DNA of 63,080 bases from the IMG/VR virus record IMGVR_UViG_3300022562_000858, positions 1-63,080 of that record. One strand, 5' to 3'. Numbering within the stretch: position 1 is the stretch's first letter; the number at the start of each line of letters is the position of its first letter. A program made the translations under genes and the position numbers. The notes beneath the pieces are model-generated. The model worked only from the letters and a program-made list of their open reading frames with translations. It was not told where the DNA came from and made no database searches. The stretch comes from a virus. Of this stretch, positions 484 to 40,990 are shown in pieces.

Positions 484-612
484 ATGAAAATGCACTGGTC
501 CTGGTGGGTCTACATCGCCATCTTGATCCTGACGCTGCTAGTCAGCTACCCACCCCACCGCACTCCGTCAGTCGATGACTCCAGCGACCATGCCGGGCGC
601 TGGTCTCACTGA
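484..612 (+). CDS. Possible 42-aa single-span membrane peptide
   Basis: This short plus-strand ORF starts MKMHWSWWVY and continues with a hydrophobic run (IAILILTLLVSY), so it would be a one-helix membrane peptide with a polar tail. It lies antisense in the 210-bp gap between two minus-strand genes and overlaps the giant gene stop by 7 nt. No clear ribosome site precedes it. It could be chance; kept because the hydrophobic pattern is coherent. Confidence 0.25.
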   Translation: MKMHWSWWVYIAILILTLLVSYPPHRTPSVDDSSDHAGRWSH

Positions 613-3600
613 CCGTACTCCACCACCCGCTCGGCAATCTCGTTCTTCCGGCGCGTGAGCTCGTCCAGCCGGGTGCGCTTCGCCGCGGCATCCATCGAAT
701 CGTTGGCGTGTAGGATCGTGATTTGGTTGTTGATCTGCCGCAGTTGCCGCTGCGCCCGCGTGTAGCGCGCCTTGTTCTTGAGCAGATCCTTGTGCTTCTC
801 CCGCAGTGACTTCGCCCGCTCGGTGTCGTGCACCTTCCTCGCCGCGCGGATGTCAGCGTATGCCTGCTCAATCTCCTGGAGCTGCTCGTAGAAGGTGGTG
901 ACGTACTTGCTGTGCCGGTTCGGATTCTCCCGCACGAACCGCCCGATCACCGGGTAGTCCTGAATCTGCTTGGCGGGCCGCACCGGCGCCCCGGTCGCGG
1001 GGCGGGCCATCAGGTCCACGCCGGCCAGCGCACTGGCGCCCAGCCACCCGAAGTACCCTTCAACCAGGTAGTCGATCTGCACCGGAGAGAGCACCACCTT
1101 GCCCCACGAAATACGGTCCATCGCCAGGCTGGCCGCAATGCCGGTCTGCGTGGTCCACACCCGGCGCCGCTCGGTGGGCGAGAGCCGTTCCATGCTCATG
1201 CTCTCAATCGGCCGCTTGGTGAACGGGTCCTTGTTGGCGTAGATGTCCAGAATCGGCTGGAACATCTGCGGCACCGCGCTGAACGCGAATGTCTGGTGCA
1301 GCATGAAGCCCAGGCGCTCGGCAAACAGATCGCCGTGCGCTTCGTCGTCGACGATCTGCTCCACCACGCGCTCGGCCAGCGTACCCAGCGCGCCGACCTC
1401 GAATGGCTTGGGCAGGCGGAACTGGTAGTCGGAGCCCGGCAGCTTGAACCACCAGTAGTTGTCCCGGTCCCAATCCTCGCGCTGCTTGAAGTCGTCGTCG
1501 TCGCGGAACAGCAGGTACAGCAGCGCGCTGACCATCATCACCGCGCCGGTCACAGCCACGAACTGCTTGCGCTGCTGGTGATCACGGACTGCCCGCCCCA
1601 TCTTGTGAAGGCCCTGCAGCCGGGCATTGAGGAACGGCACCGCCTGCACCAGAAAGCGGATCGCCGGCCACGCGCCGTGCACGCTGAAATCCATCAGGTC
1701 CCGGGCCGCAAAGTTGGCCTCGAGCAGCGAGCCGCCACGGTCGAGGACCTGCTGGAACAGCGCCGCGCGGTTGACGTTCTCCACCCGGCTACCGAGCTCG
1801 GCCCACGAGTCCCACATCGTCTTGACTGCCCCGCGGAAGGTCTTGAACGCCTCGGGGTTGTTCAGGACGGTGTGCTCCTGGATGCCCTTCTGGATGCGCA
1901 GCTTCGCCGCTTCCGGGTCTGCGGCGTACAGGTGGCCGAAGTGCATCTCACCGCCGCCGGCCAACATCCGGGCCCGGATCAAGCCCTTGGGGCTGGTGCC
2001 CTTGGCGCCAGTTAGCACGTTTCCGATCAGGTTGTAGCTCAGCGGCGTGACCGCCGCGGCGTGGATCGTGTCACGGAGCAGGTTGGCGATACGGAATTCG
2101 GGGCTCGCCGTCACGCCGATAGTGAATCCGCGCTTGAACTTGCGCATCATCTGCATCGCCGGGTTGTTGAACCCTTCCCAATTGAGCGCCGTCAGGGCCT
2201 CCAGCACCAGCTCGTCGTCGACGTCGAAATACTGCTTCTGCCCAGCGACGCGGATGAACACCGATCCCTTGCCCGCCTGGTGCGCCCTGATCGGCGTAGC
2301 GATGCCCGCGCGGTTGGCCTGCGTCAGCGCCTCGGTGGCCGCCTGGTTGCGCAGGCTCGCGCTCAGCAGGTGCGACCAGTTCATCAGCACGTTCGAGAGC
2401 AGATCGTTCAGCGGGATGTCAGCGCCCTTGAGCCGTTTGTACGCCGTCTGGTTGACGAGGCTACGCAAGCTGCTCGGGCCGCGCACCTTCTGCCCTTCCT
2501 CCTGCAGCAGCCGGTAGAACGGCACGTAGAAGTCCTCATCCCAGCGCGCGCGCTCCTGCGGGTCGATGGTGCCGGTCTGCTCCGCGATGTCGAGCACGGA
2601 CTTCTGGAAGGCGTTGAGCTCGGCCAGCGCCGTGCGATAGACCTCCGCGCGGTTACGTCCATCGGCCATGGTGCCGCGGTTCAGGGTCTTGAGCGCCGCA
2701 ACCTCCTGGTCCGTGAACAGCCGCTCGCGCACGCTGGCGATGTCCTCCAGCGCCTTGGCCTCGTTGCGCAGCCGCGTCGCCTGCTTGCGCAGCGCCTTCT
2801 TCTGCTGCACCTGCTGCCGGGTCGCACCCACTTCGAGCCGCCGCGCCTGCGCTTCGAGCTGCTTCGCCTGGTTGATCCGGTCCTTGGCCATGCGCGTGGC
2901 CGTGGCGCTGCGCCGGTTCAGGCGGTCCGAGCGGTTGCCGGCAATCCACATCAGGAAGTGGTCGAGTTCCTCGCCCAGCGGGCGCAAGGCCTGCGCGAGC
3001 CCCTGGCCGTTGGTGTCGACGTCGATCGCGCCGGACCGATCCAGTTTCAGCTTGCCGTGCGTGAACGCCGCCTCCACCGCACCGGATACGCTGTGCGTCT
3101 GCCGCGCCAGCATCCAGGCCTTTTCCGAGAGGTTCTTGAGGCTTGCGTACTGGTCGAAGATGCCCTGCGACACCTTGAGCCCGAAGTCCTGCTTCATTTC
3201 CATGATGCGCTGGCGGATGGGCTTGCGCGGCGCCTGCGGAGCGTGCTTCTCCATGGCCGCCTGCTGCTCGGGCGTCAGTTGCCGTGACGGTGCGGTGCGC
3301 CGGGTCGCGCGGGCGATCACAGACTTGGCGCGATCGCTGCTCACGCTGAGCTGCTCGCCTTCGACCGAGACGTAATCCTCGCGCCGGAACCACGAGCGGG
3401 CCAGCGCCGAAAGGTCCGCCGGCGTGATGTCCTTCGGTCGGTACAGGCCCGCGCGCACCAGCGCCATACGGATGGCCGCGACCAGATCCTTGATGAGCTT
3501 GGAAATCGCCTCCGGGATGCTCGTGGTTGGCTTCTCCCACACCTGCAGCGCGTAGGCGGCAAATTCCTCGAGGTCCAGTTCCTTCGGCGTGTTCTTAGGC

Positions 3601-6600
3601 ACCAGCGCGTTGGCCACGCGGTAGAAGTCCGCAGCCTCGCTGTCCTCGCCGGCCAGCGCGCGCCGGCGCATCTCTGCCAGCTTCGCGGTGAACCGGTCCA
3701 TGTGCGCCTTGAGCCTCGGGTCCTTGGACATGGCGACGTGGAAAATCTCGTGCAGGATCACGCCGTACAGGCCGGCCCGGTCCATGACGTCGATATTGTC
3801 AGCGACCAGGTAGATGGCGCCGGTGCTCTTCTCGGCCAATCCGATGGTGCCGCTGAATCCAACCCCCCACTTGTTCGGCAGATCATCGGTCGATTGCACG
3901 ACGGTGAACCGATCCGCACGCTTGCCAAACATATCGCGCAGCGTCTCGCGCACAGCGTCGGCCGTCGCAAGAGACGTGGCGGGCTCGCGCTGCGACCGCG
4001 CGACGTCGGGCTCGCCTGGCTTCTTGTCCTCGTCCTTCTTGGTCAGCTCGGCCGTGACCTCCGCGAGCCGCTTCTTGGCCTTCTCCAGTTCCTCCTTATC
4101 CTTGAACGGCTTTTTGATTTCCTCTTTGGCGGTCGCGAGCTCGGCCTTCTCACGGGACGCGCGGTCGTCAATCTCTTCCAGTGCGTTGTCCCACTCCTTC
4201 ATGTAGCGGTCGAGGATCTTGAACGCTTCGACGTCGGCCATTTCCTTGAGGCCGTTGGTGTCCGTCCACATCACGTTCTTGTGGCCTTCCGCGGTGGCAA
4301 TATCGACGGTGATACCGTCATAGCCCTGCGACGTTTGCCCGCGGTATCCGGCCAGGACATCGAACCCACGGTAGCTGCCGATGGTCTCCCGCGTGCCGCG
4401 CTGCAGGCCCTTCGATGACAGGAACTTCGCTACCGCGGCCTTGAGCGCCTTGCCGGCCTTGGTGTGCGTGTCCAGCGTCTTGCCGTTGATCGTGGCCGTG
4501 AATACGCGCTCGCCCTTGTCATTCTTCGGCGTGTTCTGGTCGCGCGTGGCGATGTTGGCCTGGACGATCTTCTTCTTCTCTGCGGCGCGTGACGCCGGCC
4601 CGCCGTCCGCTTCCAGGCGGCTGATCGTCTGCTGCAGGCGATGCTGCGACCGGGTGTGCTGCTTCTTCCTGATTTCGAGCTGGCGTACCTTGTGGTCCAG
4701 ATCGACCTGCTCAAGTATCAGCGGGTTGCCGGTGGCCGCGGCCTTCATCTCCGCGGCGTTGGCCGCCTCGCCGCCGATGTCCTCCACCACGCGCACGCCG
4801 GCCTGCGCCTTGCGGAGCTGGCCGATGAACTTGGCCTTGCGCTCGATGGTCTGCCACATGCGCGAGTCGTAGGTGCGCTCGGTGGCGTAGCGGACAATCT
4901 CAATCTCGAACCCGTCCGGGTCGCGCTCGTAGAACTCGTTGCCCTGGCGGACAATGCGGCCCTCGCGCTGCTCCAGATCAGAGGGGCGCCACGGGGCGTC
5001 AAGGTGATGCAGGGCGATCAGCTTGTCCTGCACGTTCATGCCCGCGCCCATCTTCGACGTGGAGCCCAGCAGAATGCGCACGTTGCCGGCGCGCACCTGC
5101 TCCATCAGGTCCTCTTTCTGCTTCTCGGTCTTGGCGTCGTGGATGAAGGCAATCTCGCCCTCGTGCACGCCCTTGGCGATCAGCTTGTCCTTGAGGTCGT
5201 TGTAGACGTCGAACACCGACGACAGCGCCAGTATGTCGTCCGGGCTCACCTTCTCGAGCTCGGCCTGCGCCGTTTCGTCGCCATCGCGTGCACGCGCTAC
5301 GAGGTCCTGGATGCGCCGCTGCTCGGCTGAGCGCGCGGACTTGGGCGTGCTCAGGTCGATGAACACGAGCTGCGTGCCGCGATCCTTCTTCCAGCGCGTG
5401 TAGAGGTCGAAGATGCGATTGGCCGCGGTGCTCGTCTTGCTGTCGGGGTTGTCCTCTATGCCCGGGTCGATCAACCGCATATCGAGCGCGGCCTTGCGCG
5501 CGTCGTTGGTGATCTTGAGCATGTTGTCCTTTTGGGGATCGCGCGGGTCCAGATTCTCGGCCCGGTGCACAATCTCCATCATGTACGCGGACTGCTCGGT
5601 GCTGATCGGCACGATCAGGTTCTCGGGCTTGCCGCCCTTCACCTTCGGCACCGGCCAGCGCTTTCCGCGGGCCGCTGCCTGGCGCTCCAGGTCCTCCATG
5701 GTGATGACGTCGGCAAACTGGCCGTACATCGTCATCAGCTCGGGGACGTTGGTGAACTCCGACAGCCGCGTCTTGAGGCTCAATCCCTGACCAGTGGATG
5801 AAATCTCGAATGCCGTCGTGAAGTTGGCGAAGGTATCCGCCCATGCGTCGAAGTGCGTGATGCCCTGCTGCTGCAGCGTCGCGTAGTCCAGATAACGCTG
5901 CATCGTGAACATTTCGGAGATACTGTTGCTAATCGGCGTACCGGTCAGGAAGTACGCACCGCGACCGCTGTTCTTCTTCTGCAGCGTGCGCACCTTCACG
6001 AACAGATCGGTAGCGCGTTCGGACTCGGTGACGCTGATCCCCTGGCGTGCGCGCTTGGTCGCAAAAAACAGGTTCTTGAACAGATGTGCCTCGTCGACGA
6101 TCAGCGAGTCGACGCCCATCTCGCCCATATCCACGACATCATCCTTGCTGCCGCGGTCCTCCATCGCCTTCTTGATCTTGTTCTCCAGCGTCTCCTTCAT
6201 CTTTTCGAGCTGCTTGACCGTGCGCTTGCTCTCGCCGGCTTCTTCCATTTCCTCGATGGCCGCCACCAGGTCCTTGATCTGTTCCTCGAGAAAGGCCTGA
6301 TATTCGTCCAGCGGGGTCGGGATGAACTTGAACGACGAATGCGCAACGATGATGGCGTCGTAGTCGCCGGTGGCGATGCGCGAGAAGAACTTGCGCCGGT
6401 TCTGCTTCTGGAAGTCATTTTTGGTGGCGGCCAGCACGTTGGCACCAGGGTAGAGGCGCTGAAAGTCCGCGGCCCACTGCTCCACCAGATGATTCGGGAC
6501 CACATACATGGGCTTGTTGGCGAGCCCAAGCCGGCGCATTTCCATGCCCACAGCGATCGCGGCGAAGGTCTTGCCGGCGCCGACGACGTGATCCATGAGC

Positions 6601-9600
6601 AGCCGCCCCTCCTGGATCGCGCGCCAGATCACATCCTTCTGGTGCTGGCGCAACGTGATCGTCGCATTCATCCCCGGCAGGGTCAGGTGCGAACCGTCGT
6701 AGCGCCGCTGAATCGAGTGGTTGAAGGTGTCGTTATAGAGACGGGCCAGGCGATCGCGACGGTCCTCGTCCTTCCACACCCATTCCAAGAACTCTTGCCG
6801 GATGGCGTCAGCCTTCGCGTTGAGCTCGGCAGTGGCCTCCTGATCGACAATCGTGGAACCATTGCTGTCCCGATAGGTGACGCGCACCGGGCGGTTGTTC
6901 ACCACGTTGTCGATGATCCGGCTCGCCCCCATCTGCTCGATGCCCCACATTTCGTGGTTGCGAGTACGATCGGGACGTCCCTTGAGCTTGACGATCCATG
7001 TGCCGGTCAGCGTCGAATACTGCGCGTGCGACGGAATTTGGAGCAGGTGCGTGATGAAGTCCTGCATGTCCTCGGCAGGAATCCACGGCGCACCGAGGCG
7101 CACGGAAATGTCGACCGGCTCTACATCATCGGGCTGTACCTTCTCCAGCGCCTCGATGTTGGCCGCGAACCTCGGATCAGTCTGTTCCTTCGCCTGCGCG
7201 AGCTTGGCCTTGACGTTGCCGGACAGGTATTCGTCAGCCGTCACCCATCCCGCTACGGGGTCCAGATAGATGCGCCCGGCCAGGTCCTTGATGATGCGCT
7301 CGGGGTCTTGCCCTGAGAGCTGCGCCATGTAGTCGACGTCGACCTTGCCACGCTGGTTCAGCGAGACCTTGAGCGCAGAATCCGCGTCGTCGACGCGCGT
7401 GATCTCCCGGTAGGGGAGATTGACGCGCTTGGTGAAGATGTCGGCCTTGTCTGCGCGGGCCTTGCGCGGCTTGGTCCCTAGCTGCTTGGCACGCTTTGGC
7501 GAGACGGCGCGCTCGTAGCCGCGCTCCAGCGACAGCAGCAGCGGGTACTCGGGATCGCCCTCGAATACCAGCTTTGTGCCCTGGCTGTGCAGCAGCCCGA
7601 ACTTCTTGACGTGCGCATCGTAGAGCCGGTTGAGCTTCTTGCGCTTCGCCTCGATGTCCTTGGCGTCGCTGCGCTCGGCGGCGATCAGCTCCTTCACCGC
7701 GTTCGCCAACCCGATCAGATCGCGGACGCGCTTCTTCTCGGATTCGGAGAAGGGCCGCTGATTTCCCTTGCTGTCCTCGTACACCGCCGGGCGGGCCTGG
7801 CGCTTGTCCAGCTCGTCTGGCGTGCGCTCCATGATTTCGCCGTCCGCGCCGACGAACAGGCCCCACACCTTCGTGGTCTCTGGAATCTCTCCAGGGGCCG
7901 CCGGCTGCGGCGCCGGTTCCTCGGCAATGCGGTCGACCGGATCCATAGCGTTGGCGGGCAGCTTTGCAACCGCGGCCTCGAGCTCGGCGGCGAGGTCCTG
8001 GTCCTTCGGGGCGATCAGCGCGGCAGAGTCCTTGGCATACATCGAACCCTCGCGGCGCATTTCACCCAGCATCATGTCGGGGTGGTTGACGAAATACTCG
8101 TTGAGCGTGATCGCTTCGCCGCCGGCGGGGTCCTCCACCGTGCCTACATGGGTCCAAGCGGTTTCGATGACCGGCACGCCCTCCCCACGCTTCTGGAGGA
8201 AGATGATGTCGGTCGTGACTTCGGTGCCCGCGTTCTCTTTGAATGCCGTGTTCGGCAGCCGGATCGCGCCAAGGAAATTCACCTTGTCGCCCATGTACTC
8301 GCGCGCGCCGGCCTTGGTCGAATCGAGCATGTAGTTCGACACCACCATCGCGATCAGGCCGCCGGGGCGCGTAGCCTCAATGGACTTGGCGAAAAAGAAG
8401 TTGTGGATAGAAAACTTCGATATGTCCTTGTGGTTCGGATCGAACAGGCGTTGACTGCCGAACGGCGGATTGCCAATCACCAGGTCGAACGATCCCGACG
8501 GCACGGCCACATCCTGAAAGCCGTTGTTGATGATGTCGGCCTTCGGGTAGAGCAGTTGCGCGATCTTGGACGTGAGCGGGTCGAGCTCGATGCCGGTCCA
8601 CCGCGCCTTTGAGCGCAGCGCGCTGGGAGTCAGCCCAAGGAAGTTGCCCGTGCCCACGGACGGCTCCAGCACCTTGCCGCCAGTAAAGCCGAAGCGCGCC
8701 AGCGCGTTGTAGATCGCGCCCACGACGGTGGGGGATGTGTAGTGGGCGTCCTGCGTGGAGCGCCGGGCCGCGGCGTATTCCTCGTCGCTCAGGACCTCAC
8801 GCAGTTCCTCGGCCTGCTTCTCCCAGCCCTTCGCAACCGAGCCGTCCGGGCGCGGGAAGGCCTGGGGCATACCGCCCCAGCCGACGTACTTGGCGAGGAT
8901 CTTCTGCTGTTCGAGAGTGGCGGGCTGGCCGGATTCGACCAGTTCCTTGGCAAGACGGATGGCAGCGACGTTCTGTGCGAACTTGGTCTTGACGCCGCCG
9001 CGGCCGAGCTCGTCGGCCTCGGTGATGCGGTAGTTCCCTACGCCTCGGGTGGCTGGCTCTCCGGCGGCGGGAACAGATACCTCTCCCTCACCGCTTCCCA
9101 CGCCTCGTCGTACGTCAGCCCCGCTATCTCCTGGAGCTGACTCATATCCCGGCGCGTGTTCGTCACCGCCTTCGCGACCTCCGCGTTCAGCCGGCCCTCG
9201 GCCTGCAGGCGTGCGTACCGGCTCGGCTGAAACTCCTTCCAGTGCCGTCTCGCCTGCTCGTTCCACGCTGACATCGGGGGCCTCCTGGGGCGGCGTCGTC
9301 TCGCCCTCGGTTTCGAGTTTACCACTCTCCGGTGCGGCGGGAGCCGGTTCCGGCGTTTTCTGTGAGGGTTTCGCGGGGGCAGGTTCGGCGGGCTCTGCCT
9401 GTGCCTTGCGCTCGTCCCTTTCCGTGGCCGTCAGGAACCGCGCATCGCGGCCCTCTTTGTTGATGATGATGCCGCGGCCAGGCACGATGCCTACAGACTC
9501 CGTGATGCGAATCCCCCCATCTGTGATCGAGCGCACGCCGTTGTGGTCCTCATACAGCGGCTCTCCGGCAGAGTTGGCGCCTATGCGCTTCCAGCCTTTC

Positions 9601-11954
9601 TCCTGCTTCGGCGCTTGTGCTTCGGACTCAGCTTCGGCTCGCTCTTTTTCCTGGTCCCGTTGTAGATTCGTGCCGCCTTTCTCTTGGCGTTTTTCGGACT
9701 CATTCCCTCGTCCTCGAACTTGTCCCTCATCGCTTCGTACCGTCTCGGCATTGTCGGTGGCCTCCGTGGGCACGTCCCGTCCGTCGTCGGTGAACGGGAC
9801 CTCATCGGTAGACGTCTCGGGCTTGGGCTTGCGCGGCGGCGTGGCGGCGGGCTCTGCCACCTGCATATCGCGGTCGTCGTCGGTGTGCGGGACTTCCTCG
9901 CCCTTCTTCTTCGCGTTGCGCGCCTTCACCCGCTTGAACGTGTCGGACTGGCCGACAGGCTTCTTGGTATCGCCGTTCTTGAGCCAGTCCTTGAACTCGT
10001 CGACGGACATCGCGGTGATGCCGCGCATCCCCTTCCATCCCTTGCCGTAGTTCGACAGATACCCCTCGCGCGCAGCCTGCTCCGAATCGAAGCCCACCAT
10101 GGCCTTGTGCTCGTCGAACGCTCCCGTCTTGGGATTGCGCTGGTCGACGACGTACACCGTCTCCGACTGCGGATCGGGGCCGAGGAACACGTCGACCTGA
10201 TCGCCGTCATTGCCCTCAGTGCGGCGGATGTAGCCGTAGTCGTGGGTCAGATCGGGCCACTCGGGGCGGCGCTTCGAGCCGGCGGGGTTCTCGATGGAGA
10301 TGTCGAGGCCGTGGACCTGGACGTGCCCCTTCTTATAGTTGCCGGCCTTCTTCTGAGCCTCGGTGGGCTCGGGCAGGTCGTTGTCGGGGGACGTCGCCGC
10401 TTCGGCTGCGGCCTGGTCGATGGCATCCTCAACGCTCGCAGGCGCGGCGGCAGCGGGCTCCGTGGTCAGCTCGGCCACGTCTATCCCAGCGGTAGGCACC
10501 TGCTCGGCCGGCGCCGCGGCGGGCTGCGTCTCCTGCAGCGGGAGCTCGGCCACGTCAATCCCGGTCGTATCGACCGGCTCCACGGGCGGCTCGGCCGCGG
10601 CGACGTCCTGCGCCGACAGCTCGGTGACGTCGATCCCGGCGGTATCGGGCGGCGGCGGCGCGGCGGTCAGGTCTTGCGTCTGCAGCTCCGTGACGTCGAT
10701 GCCCTCAGTGTCCAGCGGCCGCGTGACGTCGACCTGCTCGGGGCTGAGCTCCTGCACGTCGATGCCCGGCGCGTTGGCAAGCGTGTCCTCGATGGTGATT
10801 TCTTCGGCACCGAGCGCGGTGTCGCCGGCGCCCAGCAGGTCCTCGCTCTCGCCGCCGGCCAGGTCGGTGCCGCGCTCGGGAATCTCTGGCGCGGGCGGTG
10901 CCTCTGGCTGCCCGGCCTGCCGGTGCGCGATGACGCCAGCGGGGACCCCCATCACGCCGCCCATCAGGCCGCCGGCGGCGCTGGCGTTGATGATTTCGTT
11001 CCACCCCTCGTCGGAGAAGATGTCCTTGTTGTCGTCGACGAACTTCGCCGCGGCGCGCTCCACCACCGTCTGCACGCCTTCGGTGGACCCTTCGAGCGCG
11101 GCCTGCTCGAGCACCTTCTTCGTCGCCGCGCCCCACTTCCCCTGCGTGAGATTCTTGAGGATCGCGCCTTTGACCTCGCGGCCGATGCCCCAATTGTCGA
11201 ACAGGTTGATCACCGGGATCGCGTCGAGCGCGCCGGCGAGCACACCGAACGCCGCGGCCACGCCGGGATGCGTCTGACCGTTTTCCTCTACCGTGTCCGC
11301 GAAGATGCCGCCGGCCTCGAGTCCCGATGATCCGGCGAAAGCTCCAGCCATCTGCCCGCGCCGTACGCCCTTGTCCAGCGCGCGTGTGGCCAGGCGCTTG
11401 AGCGCAGCTTCGTTGACGGTACGCCCGGCTTTCTCGCCCAGCGCCTTAGACAGATAGGATTTCACCCCCTGCTTGGCGGCCTGCTTGCCGATCGCACCGC
11501 CGATCCCACCACCGCCGATCAGCACTGCCATGGTCGGCACCAGGTTGCCCAGCGTGTACGCGGACCAGTCCAGGAAGTCGGCACCGCTGCGGATGTCGGT
11601 GACGCTCGACACACGCCCGGCGTTCTGCGCCGCTTCGTCGACGTTGCGCTGATAGCCTTCCAAACCCCAGCTTTCGAGGTCTTTGCTGCCCACGGCAGAC
11701 CCCGCCAGCCCGGCGAGCCCGTAGAGAAGGCCCTGCGTCTGGTCGATGCCGGACTTCAACCCCTTGGTGAACTGCGAATCGTCGGACGGTTGCGCCGCGG
11801 CACCGGCGAGCGCGCGCGGTTCCTCGAGGCGATACCCGTCCGGCAGCGCCGGCAGTCGGGACGTAGCCGGTCCGGGCTGCGTAGGGGTGGGCTCAACAGG
11901 CTCTACCCGGTAGCCCTCGGGGAGCTCCGGGAGGTTGTTCGCAGGGGTGCTCAA
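606..11954 (-). CDS. Giant polyvalent ejection protein: pyrophosphatase-like, adenine methyltransferase, SNF2 helicase, metallopeptidase
   Basis: At 3782 residues this gene takes 18 percent of the genome. In order: two LPxLPxGYR motifs (residues ~8-42); Gly/Ala-rich hydrophobic helices (~70-350); five repeats built on GIDVxEL (~388-497); an inorganic-pyrophosphatase-like domain (~530-660, KKGHVQVHG to FKDWL, with GDQVDVFLGP); a long charged linker; an N6-adenine methyltransferase (~1010-1270, SAM loop EPSVGTGNF, catalytic NPPF near 1160); an SNF2-type helicase (~1760-2350, GAGKT near 1790, DEAH near 1951, QREGRIVRQG near 2328); an HEIFH zinc-peptidase motif near 2733; and a C-terminal region around 3269 resembling a large-polyvalent-protein-associated domain, with a hydrophobic segment near 3466. 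Known family logic: polyvalent proteins enter recipient cells with phage or plasmid DNA and counter host defences. It overlaps the upstream gene by 4 nt, in the slot of podovirus internal virion proteins. Ejection is inferred. Confidence 0.93.
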   Translation of the reverse strand: MSTPANNLPELPEGYRVEPVEPTPTQPGPATSRLPALPDGYRLEEPRALAGAAAQPSDDSQFTKGLKSGIDQTQGLLYGLAGLAGSAVGSKDLESWGLEGYQRNVDEAAQNAGRVSSVTDIRSGADFLDWSAYTLGNLVPTMAVLIGGGGIGGAIGKQAAKQGVKSYLSKALGEKAGRTVNEAALKRLATRALDKGVRRGQMAGAFAGSSGLEAGGIFADTVEENGQTHPGVAAAFGVLAGALDAIPVINLFDNWGIGREVKGAILKNLTQGKWGAATKKVLEQAALEGSTEGVQTVVERAAAKFVDDNKDIFSDEGWNEIINASAAGGLMGGVMGVPAGVIAHRQAGQPEAPPAPEIPERGTDLAGGESEDLLGAGDTALGAEEITIEDTLANAPGIDVQELSPEQVDVTRPLDTEGIDVTELQTQDLTAAPPPPDTAGIDVTELSAQDVAAAEPPVEPVDTTGIDVAELPLQETQPAAAPAEQVPTAGIDVAELTTEPAAAAPASVEDAIDQAAAEAATSPDNDLPEPTEAQKKAGNYKKGHVQVHGLDISIENPAGSKRRPEWPDLTHDYGYIRRTEGNDGDQVDVFLGPDPQSETVYVVDQRNPKTGAFDEHKAMVGFDSEQAAREGYLSNYGKGWKGMRGITAMSVDEFKDWLKNGDTKKPVGQSDTFKRVKARNAKKKGEEVPHTDDDRDMQVAEPAATPPRKPKPETSTDEVPFTDDGRDVPTEATDNAETVRSDEGQVRGRGNESEKRQEKGGTNLQRDQEKERAEAESEAQAPKQEKGWKRIGANSAGEPLYEDHNGVRSITDGGIRITESVGIVPGRGIIINKEGRDARFLTATERDERKAQAEPAEPAPAKPSQKTPEPAPAAPESGKLETEGETTPPQEAPDVSVERAGETALEGVSAEPVRTPAGRGPAERGGREGGDEHAPGYESAPGDSGADVRRGVGSGEGEVSVPAAGEPATRGVGNYRITEADELGRGGVKTKFAQNVAAIRLAKELVESGQPATLEQQKILAKYVGWGGMPQAFPRPDGSVAKGWEKQAEELREVLSDEEYAAARRSTQDAHYTSPTVVGAIYNALARFGFTGGKVLEPSVGTGNFLGLTPSALRSKARWTGIELDPLTSKIAQLLYPKADIINNGFQDVAVPSGSFDLVIGNPPFGSQRLFDPNHKDISKFSIHNFFFAKSIEATRPGGLIAMVVSNYMLDSTKAGAREYMGDKVNFLGAIRLPNTAFKENAGTEVTTDIIFLQKRGEGVPVIETAWTHVGTVEDPAGGEAITLNEYFVNHPDMMLGEMRREGSMYAKDSAALIAPKDQDLAAELEAAVAKLPANAMDPVDRIAEEPAPQPAAPGEIPETTKVWGLFVGADGEIMERTPDELDKRQARPAVYEDSKGNQRPFSESEKKRVRDLIGLANAVKELIAAERSDAKDIEAKRKKLNRLYDAHVKKFGLLHSQGTKLVFEGDPEYPLLLSLERGYERAVSPKRAKQLGTKPRKARADKADIFTKRVNLPYREITRVDDADSALKVSLNQRGKVDVDYMAQLSGQDPERIIKDLAGRIYLDPVAGWVTADEYLSGNVKAKLAQAKEQTDPRFAANIEALEKVQPDDVEPVDISVRLGAPWIPAEDMQDFITHLLQIPSHAQYSTLTGTWIVKLKGRPDRTRNHEMWGIEQMGASRIIDNVVNNRPVRVTYRDSNGSTIVDQEATAELNAKADAIRQEFLEWVWKDEDRRDRLARLYNDTFNHSIQRRYDGSHLTLPGMNATITLRQHQKDVIWRAIQEGRLLMDHVVGAGKTFAAIAVGMEMRRLGLANKPMYVVPNHLVEQWAADFQRLYPGANVLAATKNDFQKQNRRKFFSRIATGDYDAIIVAHSSFKFIPTPLDEYQAFLEEQIKDLVAAIEEMEEAGESKRTVKQLEKMKETLENKIKKAMEDRGSKDDVVDMGEMGVDSLIVDEAHLFKNLFFATKRARQGISVTESERATDLFVKVRTLQKKNSGRGAYFLTGTPISNSISEMFTMQRYLDYATLQQQGITHFDAWADTFANFTTAFEISSTGQGLSLKTRLSEFTNVPELMTMYGQFADVITMEDLERQAAARGKRWPVPKVKGGKPENLIVPISTEQSAYMMEIVHRAENLDPRDPQKDNMLKITNDARKAALDMRLIDPGIEDNPDSKTSTAANRIFDLYTRWKKDRGTQLVFIDLSTPKSARSAEQRRIQDLVARARDGDETAQAELEKVSPDDILALSSVFDVYNDLKDKLIAKGVHEGEIAFIHDAKTEKQKEDLMEQVRAGNVRILLGSTSKMGAGMNVQDKLIALHHLDAPWRPSDLEQREGRIVRQGNEFYERDPDGFEIEIVRYATERTYDSRMWQTIERKAKFIGQLRKAQAGVRVVEDIGGEAANAAEMKAAATGNPLILEQVDLDHKVRQLEIRKKQHTRSQHRLQQTISRLEADGGPASRAAEKKKIVQANIATRDQNTPKNDKGERVFTATINGKTLDTHTKAGKALKAAVAKFLSSKGLQRGTRETIGSYRGFDVLAGYRGQTSQGYDGITVDIATAEGHKNVMWTDTNGLKEMADVEAFKILDRYMKEWDNALEEIDDRASREKAELATAKEEIKKPFKDKEELEKAKKRLAEVTAELTKKDEDKKPGEPDVARSQREPATSLATADAVRETLRDMFGKRADRFTVVQSTDDLPNKWGVGFSGTIGLAEKSTGAIYLVADNIDVMDRAGLYGVILHEIFHVAMSKDPRLKAHMDRFTAKLAEMRRRALAGEDSEAADFYRVANALVPKNTPKELDLEEFAAYALQVWEKPTTSIPEAISKLIKDLVAAIRMALVRAGLYRPKDITPADLSALARSWFRREDYVSVEGEQLSVSSDRAKSVIARATRRTAPSRQLTPEQQAAMEKHAPQAPRKPIRQRIMEMKQDFGLKVSQGIFDQYASLKNLSEKAWMLARQTHSVSGAVEAAFTHGKLKLDRSGAIDVDTNGQGLAQALRPLGEELDHFLMWIAGNRSDRLNRRSATATRMAKDRINQAKQLEAQARRLEVGATRQQVQQKKALRKQATRLRNEAKALEDIASVRERLFTDQEVAALKTLNRGTMADGRNRAEVYRTALAELNAFQKSVLDIAEQTGTIDPQERARWDEDFYVPFYRLLQEEGQKVRGPSSLRSLVNQTAYKRLKGADIPLNDLLSNVLMNWSHLLSASLRNQAATEALTQANRAGIATPIRAHQAGKGSVFIRVAGQKQYFDVDDELVLEALTALNWEGFNNPAMQMMRKFKRGFTIGVTASPEFRIANLLRDTIHAAAVTPLSYNLIGNVLTGAKGTSPKGLIRARMLAGGGEMHFGHLYAADPEAAKLRIQKGIQEHTVLNNPEAFKTFRGAVKTMWDSWAELGSRVENVNRAALFQQVLDRGGSLLEANFAARDLMDFSVHGAWPAIRFLVQAVPFLNARLQGLHKMGRAVRDHQQRKQFVAVTGAVMMVSALLYLLFRDDDDFKQREDWDRDNYWWFKLPGSDYQFRLPKPFEVGALGTLAERVVEQIVDDEAHGDLFAERLGFMLHQTFAFSAVPQMFQPILDIYANKDPFTKRPIESMSMERLSPTERRRVWTTQTGIAASLAMDRISWGKVVLSPVQIDYLVEGYFGWLGASALAGVDLMARPATGAPVRPAKQIQDYPVIGRFVRENPNRHSKYVTTFYEQLQEIEQAYADIRAARKVHDTERAKSLREKHKDLLKNKARYTRAQRQLRQINNQITILHANDSMDAAAKRTRLDELTRRKNEIAERVVEYGQ

Positions 11955-13513
11955 GCGGCCTTCTCTTTCTCTCGGCGCTTCAATTCGCGGCGCAGGTCGC
12001 GTTTGTCCTTGTTCGAGACTTCGGTGCTCTTGAGCGCTGTGCGTATCGTCTCGTCATTCAAGTCGCCCATCTTGCCTTTGCCGATGGCCTCCTTGACCTT
12101 CGCGACGCTGCGGCGCTCTGGCGCCAGTATCTTTTCTGCCCGCTCCGGGGACACGCCCTTGTAAACCAGATTCCGCACCAACCGCTCGGCAAAGTCTGGT
12201 TTAGCGTCGCTCGCTGGCTGATCGTTCTTCTTGGCCGGTTTCTCTGCCGTGCTCGGCTTCTCGGACTTCGCTGCCGGCTGCGCGGCCTCCTGACGAGCCG
12301 GCACCTTGGCCTTCGGCTTGACCTCGCTGAACAGCGGCTTGCCCGTCTTGGCGTCCGCCCACACACCGTTTTTCACGGTGGCCTCTACCGCCTTGCCGTC
12401 CGGGCCGACGATCTTGTAGGTGTTCTGCTGCTGCCCGCCACCGCTGGGACCGCCCTGATTGCGGAACCTGCGGAACGCATCTACCGCGGCCGCGGCTTCC
12501 TCGCTGCTGCCGGTCGCCGTGTAAGCCTCGGTGTACAGCTTGTCCTCGACCTCCTGCGGGTTCTTGCCACGGCTCCGTTTGTAGAACTCCGCGGCCTTGC
12601 CGGCATCGCCGCCGAACAGGTTTTTCGCGTACCACTCGATTTCCGCCACCGCCGCCGGCTTGTCGCTCGCCTGGTCCAGCGCACTCTTGACGAGCTCGTT
12701 CTGCCGGTCGAGTGCCTTCTGCTCGGCTGCCTGCGAGAGCTTGCGTTCCTCCAAGCCCTGCGTCTGCGCGGCCTGCCCCTCCTTGTCGAGCTGCTGAATC
12801 TGCCGGGTGAGGTCGCGGTGCAGCACACGGTTGCGCGCCAGATCGGTGATGCTCTGGTTGCCGCCGAGATTGACGTTGCGCAGCTCGCGCTCCAACAGCG
12901 CGCGGCGATTGAGGCGACGTTCCTCGGGGCTGGCGTCGCTCGCCAGGTGCGCATTTCCCTCTGCACGCAAGCGCTGATCGTTGCGGACCTGCGTGGAGTA
13001 GCCGGTGCCCTCCGCGTTGAGCCCCACGTCGCGCCGCGCCATGGCAAGCCGCTGATCGTTTGACAGGAACGGGTTGACGTCAGAGGGGATCGTGCTCACG
13101 GTGCCGCCTGGCCCCCCAGCGGCGCCGGTGAGCCCGGCTGCCACACGGGCGCGCTGCAGGTCCGCGTGCAGGCTATCCAGATCGTTCAGCGAATCGGGGC
13201 CGTAGCGCTCGGCCATGAGGGTCCGCGCATCTGGCACAATGCCGGTGAGGTACTCCATGCTGTCGCCCATGAATCCGCGCAGGTTGCCGCGTCGCGCCGC
13301 TTCGTCCACCGGATTGGCTTGGCCGCCACCCCCCGGCATCGACGGTCCTGAACCTGGCGCCGGCGGTCCGCCGCGCAGCGTGTCGATGTTGCGCTGGTCG
13401 CTGAACCGATTGAGCTTGCGATCCTCGCGGTCGCTGGTGGCAAAGATGTCCTCGCCAAGCTGCTGAATAGGCTGGTTCTGCGCCGATTTGCGGAAGTATT
13501 CTTGATCCGGCAT
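11951..13513 (-). CDS. Probable internal virion protein, 520 aa
   Basis: No family recognised. The N-terminal third is Gly/Pro-rich and flexible, the middle (~190-260) is strongly charged and likely coiled coil (ERKLSQAAEQKALDRQ and similar), a globular stretch with KIVGPDGKAVEATVKNG follows near 365, and the tail is Lys/Arg/Glu-rich. Its start lies 3 nt after the upstream stop and its end overlaps the giant gene by 4 nt, so the three proteins are made together. In podoviruses the genes in this slot encode ejected core proteins, so a partner or loader for the giant protein is a reasonable guess. Confidence 0.85.
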   Translation of the reverse strand: MPDQEYFRKSAQNQPIQQLGEDIFATSDREDRKLNRFSDQRNIDTLRGGPPAPGSGPSMPGGGGQANPVDEAARRGNLRGFMGDSMEYLTGIVPDARTLMAERYGPDSLNDLDSLHADLQRARVAAGLTGAAGGPGGTVSTIPSDVNPFLSNDQRLAMARRDVGLNAEGTGYSTQVRNDQRLRAEGNAHLASDASPEERRLNRRALLERELRNVNLGGNQSITDLARNRVLHRDLTRQIQQLDKEGQAAQTQGLEERKLSQAAEQKALDRQNELVKSALDQASDKPAAVAEIEWYAKNLFGGDAGKAAEFYKRSRGKNPQEVEDKLYTEAYTATGSSEEAAAAVDAFRRFRNQGGPSGGGQQQNTYKIVGPDGKAVEATVKNGVWADAKTGKPLFSEVKPKAKVPARQEAAQPAAKSEKPSTAEKPAKKNDQPASDAKPDFAERLVRNLVYKGVSPERAEKILAPERRSVAKVKEAIGKGKMGDLNDETIRTALKSTEVSNKDKRDLRRELKRREKEKAA

Positions 13514-13516
13514 AGC

Positions 13517-14497
13517 CTAAACCTCGCTCGTCGTCTCTGACACGATTGTTGCCATGGTGTTCTGCGACGCGATCGCGGACTGCGCGATGCCGCCCATCTG
13601 CTGCGCTGCCGAGATTGCCGCGTTCGTGTGGTTCTTCGCCTGGCGGTCAGCGGCGTCCAGGTTGTACAGCGTCTCGGCGCGGTTCGCCTCGAAGTCGTTG
13701 TTGGAGTAGTTGAGCAGCAGGTTCTCGAATTGGATGCGCGCCTGGTAATACTGAATCGACTGGTTGTAGAACTGGATCGTCGCATTGAGCAGCGCGTTGC
13801 TCAGATCCGCCGACGTCGTGTAGGAGCGCAGCATCAAGCTCACCCAATTAGCGGCGGCCTGGATGATCCCAAGGTGCAGGGCCACGCTCTGCTGGACGGC
13901 AAAGCGCACGTTCGACTGTTCGAGCTCGGCCTGCTTGATCGCGATGTCGCGCGACAGGCCGGAATCCCGGTTGATGTTCTCCTGCGTATTCACGCGCAGG
14001 CGCTCGGCCAGCACCCCGGACGGCAGCGCCCAGCCGCGGGCGGCCATGGCCGATACCGCGTCGTCCGTGGAGCGCTGATTCAGCGCATCCTCTCGCGTGC
14101 GCGCGCGATCCCATATCTGGCTCTCAACGGCCGGGCTCAGGCCGGTGCCGCCGTTCGTGATGGCGTTGTCGAGCCACCCGGCCACGCTCGCCAGCTTCGC
14201 CGTGAAGTCCGGGTAATAGGTGTTGAGCCAGTCCTGAAACTGCTCGTTGATGAACGCCTCGATTTCATCCTGCTTGGCGTCCTGCTCCCCCTCGAACAGA
14301 TTGCCCAAGTCGAGCGGCGGCGCGGTCAGAGCCGGTTCGGTCGGTTCGTCGATTTCCGGCCACGTCGGCGTCGGCACAGACGCATACTTCGCCGCGCGTA
14401 CCGCTTCCTCCGCGAAGTCGTTGGCGCGGTCGGCGTAGGTCTGCGCCTGGTCTATCGCGTTGTCGATGACCTGTTGTACGGTTTCTTCGGCTGCCAT
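13517..14497 (-). CDS. Probable internal virion or tail protein, 326 aa, helical
   Basis: The chain is almost entirely helical. It starts MAAEETVQQVIDNAIDQAQ with heptad-like spacing, has a Pro-rich strip at 40-65, then long amphipathic helices with repeated Gln, Ala and Asn to the end. No signal or enzyme motif is seen. It overlaps the propeller gene upstream by 1 nt and is spaced 3 nt from the next. Helical, Gln/Ala-rich proteins next to giant ejection proteins are typical of podovirus inner cores. Function inferred from position only. Confidence 0.85.
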   Translation of the reverse strand: MAAEETVQQVIDNAIDQAQTYADRANDFAEEAVRAAKYASVPTPTWPEIDEPTEPALTAPPLDLGNLFEGEQDAKQDEIEAFINEQFQDWLNTYYPDFTAKLASVAGWLDNAITNGGTGLSPAVESQIWDRARTREDALNQRSTDDAVSAMAARGWALPSGVLAERLRVNTQENINRDSGLSRDIAIKQAELEQSNVRFAVQQSVALHLGIIQAAANWVSLMLRSYTTSADLSNALLNATIQFYNQSIQYYQARIQFENLLLNYSNNDFEANRAETLYNLDAADRQAKNHTNAAISAAQQMGGIAQSAIASQNTMATIVSETTSEV

Positions 14498-15954
14498 CAG
14501 TTTGTCCGGGAGAGTTTTCTGGTCAGGACGATCGGCGTCAGGGAGATGGAGTCGAGCTCGAAGTCATCCCCATCCTTGTTGAGCAGCTCGAACTGCCAGT
14601 AGTTCGCCTGCACGCCGCGGCCCAGCTTGCAGCGGGACCGGTGGATACCGGCGTTGGTTTGCCGCATCTCGTACCACCGCTCCTTGCCTTCGTCCGTGAT
14701 CGTCTTGACGACCATCGCGCCATCGTTGCGGATGCCAAAATAGGCCTCGATCACGCGCTTGAGGTTCGATACCCCGAAATCTGTGACCCCGGTGCGCGCC
14801 CGTGCCGCGATCGCGGTGCCGGCGTCGTCGGTTCCGGTGAGCACGTAGATGCCAGAGTCATTGGCGCCCAGCGCCGCCCCATTGAGGCGCGCGTAGGAGT
14901 TGAACGCGAAATTCGTGTACTGCGTCATCGCGTAGTTGGCGGTGTTCATGACCCAGCCGGTGTAGGCGTCCGCTCCGGTGCTGAGTCCCACCGCGAACAC
15001 CACGCCTTCGGAGAGCGCCTGCTGGATGATCTGCCCGGCGCTGAGTGTGTCGTCGACCGTCAGGCCATCGGACAGGGCCGTGATCCACACGCCCGACACC
15101 ACCAGGGCATCGTCGGCCGTCAGGTCGTCAGTGATTTCCCCGTGCGCCTGGAACAGTGCGACCGCGCTTTCGTCGATTTCCACCGCTTCGACCAGCGTGC
15201 GCCCGTAGTAGCCGAGAATGGCCGAGCTCAGCGTCACCGCGTCGGATACCGCCTCGTTGTTGATGAACGGGCGGTCATTGAGTTGCGCGGTGTCGGCCGC
15301 CGGCTGCACGAATGCCCCGAGCGCATCGGTACCGTCGTCTGTCTGCAGCACGGTCTCACTGAGGTACTCGTACTTCGGCTCGCGCTCCAGGTCGTGTAGC
15401 GCCGGGTTCGGCAGCTCCATCGACTCGGACGCCGTGACGTTGTAGGTGCTGCCGGCTGCGCTGATGCTGCCCGAAGCGCCAACACCATCCTCAAGCGAGG
15501 CATCCAGATCGAGTGTGATCAGGTCGCCGGCGATGATCGTCTCGTTGTCGCCGCACGCAAGCCACGATCCCGAGCCCGCCGACACGCCCCACAGGTTTTC
15601 CGTGGTCTGCGACGGGACCGAGCCCCAGGCAATCCCGTCCTCGCTTATGAGCACAGTGCCAGCGTCACCAACGGCGACGAAGTTATCGGCGTATGCGACG
15701 TCGTGCAGGTCCTCAGCCGTGCCAGAGGCCCTGGCGGTCCACGTCGTTCCTGTCGGACTGGTCAGGATCACGCCGCTGTCGCCCACCACCACGAACAGGC
15801 CTTCTCCCCACACCACCGCCCACAGCGTCGTGCTCACGCCGCTGGTCTGCGCCGTCCAGTCCTCGCCGTTGGTGCTGGTCTGGATCAGCCCATTGAGCCC
15901 AACGCGGACATACGTGGTGCCGTTGTCCGCGACTGAATGTGTGGATTCGCTCAT
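14497..15954 (-). CDS. Tail protein with N-terminal Ycf48/BNR-like propeller blades, 485 aa
   Basis: Residues ~1-155 hold three to four blades with the recurring pattern VGDSGVILTSPTGTTWT followed by a short turn and LHDVAYADNFVAVG, typical of Ycf48/BNR-type beta-propellers. The rest is beta-rich with a repeated DDLTADDAL/DGLTVDDTL theme and probably forms the fibre or attachment end. It starts by a 4-nt overlap with the preceding 223-aa gene, whose C-terminus carries the same blade type; the two could complete one propeller. A receptor-binding or tail-appendage role is inferred. Confidence 0.85.
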   Translation of the reverse strand: MSESTHSVADNGTTYVRVGLNGLIQTSTNGEDWTAQTSGVSTTLWAVVWGEGLFVVVGDSGVILTSPTGTTWTARASGTAEDLHDVAYADNFVAVGDAGTVLISEDGIAWGSVPSQTTENLWGVSAGSGSWLACGDNETIIAGDLITLDLDASLEDGVGASGSISAAGSTYNVTASESMELPNPALHDLEREPKYEYLSETVLQTDDGTDALGAFVQPAADTAQLNDRPFINNEAVSDAVTLSSAILGYYGRTLVEAVEIDESAVALFQAHGEITDDLTADDALVVSGVWITALSDGLTVDDTLSAGQIIQQALSEGVVFAVGLSTGADAYTGWVMNTANYAMTQYTNFAFNSYARLNGAALGANDSGIYVLTGTDDAGTAIAARARTGVTDFGVSNLKRVIEAYFGIRNDGAMVVKTITDEGKERWYEMRQTNAGIHRSRCKLGRGVQANYWQFELLNKDGDDFELDSISLTPIVLTRKLSRTN

Positions 15955-26810: not shown

Positions 26811-27071
26811 TCAGAATCGGAGGCTCGGGTTGGGCCGGTTCCTTTGGCCATCGGCGCGTACCACCTGGTCGCGCGCGTTGTCGAACATCGCGATCAGTTC
26901 GGCCAGCTCGAGCGCGCGGCCTTGCGTGCGTGCGACGTTCGCGCCGTCCGTGGACCGGTTCTGCCTGTCGTACTCGGCTAGGCGCTCTTCCAGCATCGGG
27001 CGCACCACCCGGCGCCACCAGTCCGTGCTCGCGAGCTGCGCCAGGCCGCGCTGTTGGTCGTAGCTCATCAT
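26811..27071 (-). CDS. Small helical protein, 86 aa
   Basis: Start overlaps the portal stop (ATGATGA context). Sequence MSYDQQRGLAQLASTDWWRRVVRPMLEERLAEY is amphipathic, followed by a second helix RALELAELIAMFDNARDQVV. Likely a head-assembly accessory protein. No family recognised. Confidence 0.82.
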   Translation of the reverse strand: MMSYDQQRGLAQLASTDWWRRVVRPMLEERLAEYDRQNRSTDGANVARTQGRALELAELIAMFDNARDQVVRADGQRNRPNPSLRF

Positions 27072-29926: not shown

Positions 29927-30000
29927 TGGTAGCGGGAACGGGAATCGAACCCGTGTCTCCAGGTTATGAGTCTGGCGTGGTGCCTCTCCACCATCCCGCG
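29927..30000 (-). tRNA. tRNA with CAT anticodon (Met-type), CCA encoded
   Basis: A full 74-nt cloverleaf reads on the minus strand: acceptor CGCGGGA/TCCCGCT, D-arm GTGG-AGAGGCA-CCAC, anticodon loop CTCATAA, T-arm ACGGG-TTCGATT-CCCGT, discriminator A and an encoded CCA. The first acceptor pair is C:T, unpaired as in initiator tRNAs, but the three G:C pairs of an initiator anticodon stem are missing and 31:39 is A:C. Could serve Met, or Ile after lysidine modification. Confidence 0.88.
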
Positions 30001-31849: not shown

Positions 31850-31889
31850 GCGGTGGGCGACGGACTCTTGCGCTGCGCTCACGGGCAAC

Positions 31890-32171
31890 TCAGTGCGGCT
31901 TGCCTTGCTTGGCCAGCGCCTCGTCGAGATAGACCATCGCCGGCGGTTCCTGCGTCGGCTCGGCCAGTTCCTTGCGCACGAGGGCGAGCAATTCATCCTC
32001 CGGCACGTTGAAGGCGATCGCCAGCACGCGCACGCAGTCGGCCAGGATGATGGCGAATGGCACGTGATCCGTGGTCTCTTCCGGCCCGCACACAATCGTC
32101 TGCGTCACGCCGTCACCCTTGGGCTCGTGGACGATGAGCCAGGGATTCACCACGCCGGCAACGGTCGTCAT
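31890..32171 (-). CDS. Hypothetical protein, 93 aa
   Basis: Starts MTTVAGVVNPWLIVHEPKG with a 4-nt overlap with the upstream gene. Contains a beta opening and helices (FAIILADCVRVLAIAFN, DELLALVRKELAEP). Lies directly before terL. No family recognised; probably a packaging-region accessory. Confidence 0.8.
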   Translation of the reverse strand: MTTVAGVVNPWLIVHEPKGDGVTQTIVCGPEETTDHVPFAIILADCVRVLAIAFNVPEDELLALVRKELAEPTQEPPAMVYLDEALAKQGKPH

Positions 32172-40620: not shown

Positions 40621-40990
40621 GGGGTATCTCCTGAATGTGTACGACGGCTTCCCCGCCCTGCTTGACCTCTCCCCGCTTGATACGCAGGTCGTCGATCTGA
40701 CCGTCGTCGATGAACACACGAGCCTTCTGCAGTGCATCCAGCAGCGGCTTGAGACGGTTGTCGACGTCGTAGGCTCTGCGTGTGGGCGCGTAGACCTCGA
40801 TTTGAACGGATAGACGACCCTCCAGCGGCCGCCCGTCGAATTGATGCCCTACGTAGCCCTGTACGTCCTCTGCATACTCCCGGCCCTTGCGACTAATCAG
40901 CACGCGCGGGTGTTTGCCCATCATCACCGCGCGGTAGTACGTGTTGGCGCTCGGCGGCCAGGGTAAACAGAGGACGATGGGCTCGCTCAT
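40613..40990 (-). CDS. rusA: RusA-family Holliday junction resolvase, 125 aa
   Basis: Matches the RusA fold by sequence order: PWPPSANTYYRAVMMGK, RVLISRKGREYAEDV, YDVDNRLKPLLDALQKAR, and DDGQIDDLRIKRGE. The conserved Asp residues of VDN and DDGQIDD bind metal. Cuts Holliday junctions made during phage recombination and replication, resolving branches before packaging. Overlaps genes on both sides by 4-8 nt. Confidence 0.92.
   Translation of the reverse strand: MSEPIVLCLPWPPSANTYYRAVMMGKHPRVLISRKGREYAEDVQGYVGHQFDGRPLEGRLSVQIEVYAPTRRAYDVDNRLKPLLDALQKARVFIDDGQIDDLRIKRGEVKQGGEAVVHIQEIPHE

What the first reader, a model, noticed from the sequence alone, without database searches (positions are those of the whole stretch)
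606..11954. 3782-residue polyvalent ejection protein with methyltransferase, helicase, peptidase and pyrophosphatase-like parts
Seen: NPPF with a SAM loop, GAGKT, DEAH and QREGRIVRQG helicase motifs, HEIFH, and KKGHVQVHG...GDQVDVF in a single open frame. Known: polyvalent proteins (the class described by Iyer, Aravind and colleagues) enter the recipient cell with the DNA and join counter-defence domains. Inference: this one sits in the slot of internal virion proteins, so it may be injected and then methylate, remodel and protect phage DNA before transcription starts. At this size it must be ejected unfolded or cut into pieces, and the HEIFH peptidase might do the cutting.
Basis: partly seen in the sequence, partly recalled or inferred. 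Interest (0 to 1): 0.88.

Follow-up and report, generated by a model that had tools for sequence, protein, structure and literature searches.

The report
DarB-like polyvalent protein, podovirus carrier tail
This phage gene encodes one 417-kDa protein that strings together a phosphatase, a DNA methylase, a DNA motor and a peptidase in front of a tail section shared by many short-tailed phages; relatives travel inside the virus particle, so it is most likely a toolkit injected with the DNA to blunt bacterial defences, a known kind of protein with a previously unmapped shared tail part.

Summary
In detail: one uninterrupted frame on the minus strand (606-11954, 3782 aa, TTG start coupled to the upstream gene) holds every motif named, in order, and profiles back the pyrophosphatase, methylase and helicase parts. 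It is a phage-type polyvalent protein of the DarB kind: the methylase-helicase pair matches P1 DarB colinearly (6e-46) and PHROG 'DarB-like antirestriction' (E=0). HEIFH belongs to a zincin family found in most relatives. The relative JC1 gp69, with the same methylase-helicase-peptidase-LPD38 layout, was detected in purified virions (PMC9144972), so packaging and injection is the best reading, though nothing here shows it for this phage. A relative with this module but no methylase-helicase (PTXU04 gp25) is essential. I propose it as packaging/ejection carrier and the rest as swappable cargo. Self-cleavage is possible but unproven; N4's virion polymerase shows cutting is not required. New member of a known kind.

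The parts
606..11954 (-). giant polyvalent protein gene, 3782 aa
   Evidence: single open frame; TTG start with SD-like AGAGAAGG overlapping the upstream stop
10395..11954 (-). aa 1-520: N-terminal region, mostly without recognised domain; partly shared at the N-terminus of dyad giants L094 and L103 (query aa 43-323 and 59-142)
   Evidence: BLASTP 1e-14 and 3e-10
10467..10766 (-). aa 397-496: Ala/Pro-rich linker with five GIDVxEL repeats
   Evidence: sequence
9978..10361 (-). aa 532-659: type I inorganic-pyrophosphatase-like domain, acidic DGDxxD signature intact
   Evidence: Pfam PF18823 1.1e-50; conserved in relatives; related domain in phage portal 9b41 5e-27
8160..8807 (-). aa 1050-1265: gamma-class adenine-N6 DNA methylase core (TSP cap, EPSVGTGNF, NPPF)
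   Evidence: Pfam Eco57I/N6_Mtase, TaqI structures, invariant catalytic motifs in 9-way alignment
6825..8159 (-). aa 1266-1710: conserved segment between methylase and motor, candidate target-recognition/coupling region
   Evidence: alignment A4; function inferred from position
4632..6815 (-). aa 1714-2441: SWI2/SNF2-type SF2 motor, all motifs intact
   Evidence: Pfam SNF2/ResIII/Helicase_C; colinear with P1 DarB; alignment
3414..3824 (-). aa 2711-2847: zincin metallopeptidase-like domain (HEIFH plus the LEE Glu)
   Evidence: iterated profile found in most relatives
618..3284 (-). aa 2891-3779: conserved C-terminal module (proposed virion/ejection carrier)
   Evidence: 77 distinct IMG/VR copies; model pLDDT 84.7, pTM 0.82; 67 viral fold matches at E<=0.001, no solved match
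1500..1568 (-). aa 3463-3485: conserved single membrane-helix-like segment of the carrier
   Evidence: Kyte-Doolittle >=1.6 in 25 of 28 distinct copies, nowhere else in the carrier
945..1499 (-). aa 3486-3670: LPD38 with hallmark REDWDRDNYWWFK
   Evidence: Pfam PF18857 3e-33; 16 of 16 relatives
11951..13513 (-). 520-aa protein of unknown family, overlapping the start of the giant; same place as virion protein gp68 (510 aa) of JC1
   Evidence: position and size only; no sequence match
14497..15954 (-). 485-aa virion structural protein in the same operon
   Evidence: phrog_26502 virion structural protein 8e-36

Best explanation
The gene encodes a DarB-like polyvalent internal virion protein of a temperate podovirus. 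Proposed working: made late with the head and tail proteins, it is packaged in the capsid in few copies through its C-terminal ~890-aa carrier (aa 2891-3779), perhaps helped by its N-terminus as in P1 DarB; at infection it leaves through the short tail ahead of or with the DNA, the carrier's single hydrophobic helix touching or entering the inner membrane; inside, the methylase-SWI2/SNF2 pair tracks along the incoming DNA and modifies adenines or blocks type I restriction in cis, the InPase removes pyrophosphate or a defence nucleotide, and the zincin may free the parts from one another. Shown here: frame, domain identities, intact catalytic motifs, homology to P1 DarB, the C-terminal position of the carrier and its exchange of cargo. 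Shown elsewhere for relatives: presence in virions (JC1 gp69), antirestriction in cis (P1 DarB), essentiality (PTXU04 gp25). Inferred: packaging, injection, catalysis and cleavage for this protein, and the carrier's role.
For: Domain hits and intact motifs. P1 DarB colinear match 6e-46, profile 6e-73. JC1 gp69 (methylase-helicase, LPD3, LPD38) gave 51 unique peptides from CsCl-purified virions; the iterated carrier profile covers JC1 aa 3622-4505 at 1e-191. P1 DarB is a head protein whose first 30 residues suffice for capsid targeting. The gene is last in a minus-strand structural run: terminase, portal, major head protein, head closure, fibre-like and virion proteins. Carrier in 77 distinct viral loci; in 58 complete ORFs of 804-3939 aa it ends a median 6 residues before the C-terminus while the part before it ranges from 1 to 3107 aa, with the methylase-helicase in 1, InPase in 5, zincin in 21; other cargo includes ADP-ribosyltransferase, RadC, ddrB-ParB, MuF-C, GNAT. 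Carrier fold confident and shared by viral proteins annotated with RelA/SpoT, methylase or transglycosylase. PTXU04 gp25 has the carrier, lacks the pair by profile, and is essential (PMC11879866); its relative HelliStehle is very restriction-sensitive (PMC11990801).
Against: No virion proteomics exist for this virus. The carrier has no sequence match to T7 gp14-16, N4 gp50 or P1 DdrB and no solved fold match, so its ejection role is by analogy of place. PTXU04 gp25 was not among the four virion bands identified in that phage, although only some gel bands were sampled. P1 DarB itself lacks this carrier, so packaging signals differ between phages. I found no demonstration of methylation by a DarB-like protein in the papers read.
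Confidence: 0.72

Rival explanations
1. Virion-structural first: the protein is a large internal core or ejection-channel protein in the manner of T7 gp16, essential for DNA delivery, and the enzyme parts are passengers that are often inactive or dispensable.
For: The carrier is the only part kept in all relatives and stands nearly alone in some; a relative with carrier but no methylase-helicase is essential; conserved single hydrophobic helix.
Against: All catalytic residues of four enzyme-like parts are intact here, and the helicase and methylase are 44-54% identical to isolates of unrelated hosts, which argues for selection on activity. Not exclusive of the best explanation.
Confidence: 0.15
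2. The methylase-motor pair modifies progeny DNA in the producing cell during assembly, so protection is written before packaging and injection of the enzyme is not needed.
For: Late-operon place means the enzyme is made when progeny DNA is available.
Against: Relative JC1 gp69 is in the virion; P1 DarB is a virion head protein that protects in cis.
Confidence: 0.06
3. A restriction-like or superinfection-exclusion system of the prophage rather than an injected counter-defence tool: the methylase-helicase resembles single-chain restriction enzymes.
For: PADLOC lists weak matches to restriction methylases and to the DISARM helicase DrmD.
Against: No nuclease domain found by Pfam; weak scores are expected for shared superfamilies; the gene sits in the structural operon.
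Confidence: 0.03

Closest known systems
JC1 gp69 / Bcep22 gp75 of Lessievirus (DarB-like antirestriction, 4515 aa in JC1)
   Same: Methylase-helicase, zincin and LPD38 carrier in the same order; end of the virion operon behind a ~510-aa gene; JC1 gp69 found in virions.
   Different: 34% identity in the pair; JC1 has an N-terminal transglycosylase-like domain and LPD3 and no InPase match. Portal here is not Lessievirus-like: best match Rhizobium phage RHph_TM3_14A, 32%.
Phage P1 DarB (2255 aa)
   Same: Colinear adenine methylase plus SWI2/SNF2 motor.
   Different: P1 DarB shows no match to the InPase, zincin or carrier parts; it needs partner Dar proteins.
Escherichia phage PTXU04 gp25 and Achromobacter phage CF418P1 2684-aa protein
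   Same: Same C-terminal carrier and zincin family; CF418P1 also has the InPase and the closest carrier of an isolate, 41%.
   Different: No methylase-helicase pair by profile.
IMG/VR giant L060 (6102 aa)
   Same: InPase, methylase-helicase and carrier in one protein.
   Different: Carrier 28% identical; zincin profile not found; otherwise unexamined.
T7 gp16 and N4 virion RNA polymerase (ejected internal proteins)
   Same: Gene place and size class; N4's contains a zincin and is packaged whole.
   Different: No sequence match to the carrier and no fold match to solved ejection proteins.

Membership tests
Phage-type polyvalent proteins (Iyer et al. 2017) | several domains of disparate biochemical activity in one polypeptide | tested here: met
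   InPase, adenine methylase, SNF2 motor, zincin-like, LPD38 in one frame
Phage-type polyvalent proteins (Iyer et al. 2017) | phage-restricted domains (InPase, LPD38) and late-gene neighbourhood | tested here: met
   Pfam hits; structural operon; list of phage-only domains
Phage-type polyvalent proteins (Iyer et al. 2017) | transmitted into the host with the DNA | not testable with these tools
   only indirect: JC1 relative in virions
DarB-like methylase-helicase proteins | EcoKI/TaqI-type adenine methylase with TP-type cap and NPP(Y/F), followed by SWI2/SNF2 ATPase | tested here: met
   HYTSP, EPSVGTGNF, NPPF, GAGKT, DEAH, QREGRIVRQG in order; TaqI hits; P1 DarB 6e-46
DarB-like methylase-helicase proteins | N-terminal LPD36 with GXG(G/A/S) motif | tested here: inconclusive
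   GRGG lies upstream of the methylase core in the aligned block but there is no Pfam LPD36 hit
DarB-like methylase-helicase proteins | protects injected DNA from type I restriction in cis | not testable with these tools
   needs an infection assay
Polyvalent-protein zincin peptidases | HExxH or HExxxH plus downstream Glu ligand | tested here: met
   HEIFH 2735, LEEFAAY 2795; same columns in relatives' giants
Polyvalent-protein zincin peptidases | cleaves the polypeptide that carries it | not testable with these tools
   no cleavage data; N4 vRNAP packaged whole, P1 DdrB cleaved
T7/N4-type internal virion ejection proteins | large protein encoded at the end of the internal virion genes | tested here: met
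   gene order in window compared with T7, N4, JC1
T7/N4-type internal virion ejection proteins | homology or shared fold with a characterised ejection protein | tested here: not met
   no profile match to T7 gp14-16 or N4 gp50; no PDB fold match at E<=0.001
Lessievirus (Bcep22-like phages) | Bcep22-type virion proteins (portal) | tested here: not met
   portal nearest to Rhizobium phage RHph_TM3_14A at 32%; no Lessievirus among the rows shown

The most novel reading that the evidence does not exclude
LPD38 is only the visible part of a ~890-aa ejection carrier, without detectable kinship to the T7 or N4 ejection proteins, used by many podoviruses to package and inject interchangeable enzyme cargo; counter-defence content is swapped by exchanging the N-terminal part while the essential delivery part stays.
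Probability: 0.5. Interest if true: 0.62.

Novelty: new member of a known kind. Interest (0 to 1): 0.4.

Why it matters
The protein itself is one more DarB-like polyvalent protein. What could matter is the C-terminal module: if it is the delivery part, it separates an essential injection function from exchangeable counter-defence cargo, gives LPD38 a role, and offers a tag for predicting which podovirus proteins are injected. It also makes a testable contrast with isolates in hand: JC1 and VvAW1 carry the methylase-helicase, PTXU04 and CF418P1 do not.

Tried and rejected
(1) A first model of aa 2661-3782 from 14 sequences (pLDDT 63) gave a cyanophage A4 pre-ejectosome as top PDB match (E=0.31). 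Not significant, and it vanished with the better model, so it is rejected as noise. (2) Carrier profile against PDB sequences: only one meaningless hit, E=1.3. (3) Carrier profile against T7 gp14-16, N4 gp50, P1 DarB and DdrB: nothing after five rounds. (4) The neighbouring 520- and 326-aa proteins against the neighbours of JC1, CF418P1, PTXU04, T7, N4: no match. (5) I first thought that methylase-helicase plus InPase plus carrier was unique to the window (carrier set only); L060 has all three, so the claim of a unique combination is dropped. (6) Prophage relatives in 84,980 genomes: one InPase-only fragment; the pattern scan needs close relatives, so this says little. (7) A search seeded with the deep carrier alignment failed for lack of conserved stretches and was redone with the closer set. 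(8) The Bcep22/BcepIL02 paper is not held.

Full report
Observation. The start is a TTG that overlaps the stop of the 520-aa gene before it and follows an SD-like AGAGAAGG. Every motif cited is there in the stated order, with additional residues each enzyme needs: the methylase cap HYTSP, helicase motif TGTPISN, and the zincin's third ligand in LEEFAAY. Pfam and PHROG profiles confirm InPase, adenine methylase, SNF2-type motor and LPD38, and place the central 2,000 residues in the family named DarB-like antirestriction with E=0. The record is a 63,080-base IMG/VR virus; integrase, CI-like repressor, Erf, DnaB and ParB-like genes make it a temperate phage, and its portal, head and head-closure genes together with its podovirus relatives suggest a podovirus.

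Methylase and motor. Against P1 DarB the match is colinear and strong (6e-46, four blocks), and a nine-sequence alignment with isolates from Vibrio, Erwinia, Ochrobactrum, Agrobacterium and Burkholderia keeps the catalytic motifs. The pair is common: 409 candidate relatives in one scan of viral contigs. Whether the enzyme methylates DNA, and at what site, cannot be read from sequence.

Peptidase. HEIFH has no Pfam match, so by itself it could be chance. An iterated profile from this region recovers the same domain in most of the relatives' giants, as HExxH or HExxxH with a conserved Glu about 60 residues on, the two forms Iyer and colleagues described. The peptidase reading is therefore well supported; self-cutting is not. 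Precedents go both ways: P1 DdrB is cleaved, N4 virion RNA polymerase is not.

Pyrophosphatase. The domain carries the type I signature DGDxxD and is about 50-60% identical to copies in other phage giants. A related domain ends a phage portal protein with a solved structure (9b41), which fits virion association.

Residues 2891-3779 behave as a unit of their own. A profile of this stretch finds 77 distinct copies in viral contigs; among 58 complete ORFs it sits at the C-terminus (median 6 residues from the end, at most 108) while what precedes it runs from 1 to 3107 residues. LPD38 is found in 16 of 16 giants scanned, whose other domains differ: ADP-ribosyltransferase in 4, InPase in 3, methylase-helicase in 3, RadC in 2, and single cases of ddrB-ParB, MuF-C, GNAT and several LPDs. 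After iteration the profile also includes VvAW1 and, at 1e-191, JC1 gp69. With 30 sequences AlphaFold2 gives one confident, mostly helical model (pLDDT 84.7, pTM 0.82). No solved structure matches it, while 67 predicted viral proteins do at E<=0.001, among them PTXU04 gp25 and proteins annotated as RelA/SpoT, type I methylase or lytic transglycosylase. It has one segment hydrophobic enough to span a membrane, just before the hallmark REDWDRDNYWWFK, in 25 of 28 distinct copies, and none elsewhere.

How it probably works. Three results from others bear on relatives of this protein. JC1 gp69 is in purified virions with 51 unique peptides (PMC9144972). PTXU04 gp25, which has the carrier and the zincin-family domain but not the methylase-helicase, is essential, and its expression was among those reported as toxic or interfering (PMC11879866). 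Its relative HelliStehle is very sensitive to restriction (PMC11990801); I did not have that genome to check its giant protein, so this is suggestive only. Together with the position at the end of the structural operon, the simplest model is an essential C-terminal part for packaging and ejection, with optional counter-defence enzymes in front. The carrier's role is inference: it has no detectable kinship with T7 gp14-16 or N4 gp50, and PTXU04 gp25 was not among four identified virion bands.

Placement. It is a polyvalent protein and a DarB-like methylase-helicase by every feature that could be tested conclusively here. It is not a Lessievirus protein: its portal is nearest to a Rhizobium phage at 32%. 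L060 shows that InPase, methylase-helicase and carrier also occur together elsewhere, so even the combination is not unique. Hence new member of a known kind, with the carrier module as the part worth pursuing.

Limits. The viral collection is fragmentary and the searches start from this protein, so the counts describe its kin and not all phages. The numbers 77 and 58 come from hits ranked by similarity to the window's carrier, which favours close copies. The models are predictions; no experiment was done on this phage.

Noticed in passing
window 29927-30000 (-): A tRNA-Met gene lies in the gap between the portal (27068-29128) and large terminase (30119-32095) genes of the structural operon.
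   Followed up: no
window 10467-10766 (-), aa 397-496: Five GIDVxEL repeats spaced 21-25 residues apart in an Ala/Pro-rich linker before the InPase; function unknown.
   Followed up: no
L122 7264-12493, L150 1976-10311, L133 2687-9777, L021 3-3895: A short carrier ORF overlaps the end of a long upstream ORF in another frame: either cargo and carrier are two genes there, or a frameshift (natural or sequencing) splits one giant.
   Followed up: partly
L003 13730-13732: A single in-frame TGA interrupts an otherwise open 15-kb giant reading frame inside the helicase; error, recoding or a broken gene.
   Followed up: partly
L031 aa 2631-2759 and 2982-3109: Two copies of the zincin-family domain in one giant.
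   Followed up: no
L002 (IMGVR_UViG_3300015263_000282): A 20.8-kb contig from another metagenome is 100% identical over the first 1332 residues, so the same virus occurs in another data set.
   Followed up: no
window 39094-40737 (-): 547-aa ParB-like protein with many PHROG ParB matches and a weaker match to a DNA methyltransferase family.
   Followed up: no
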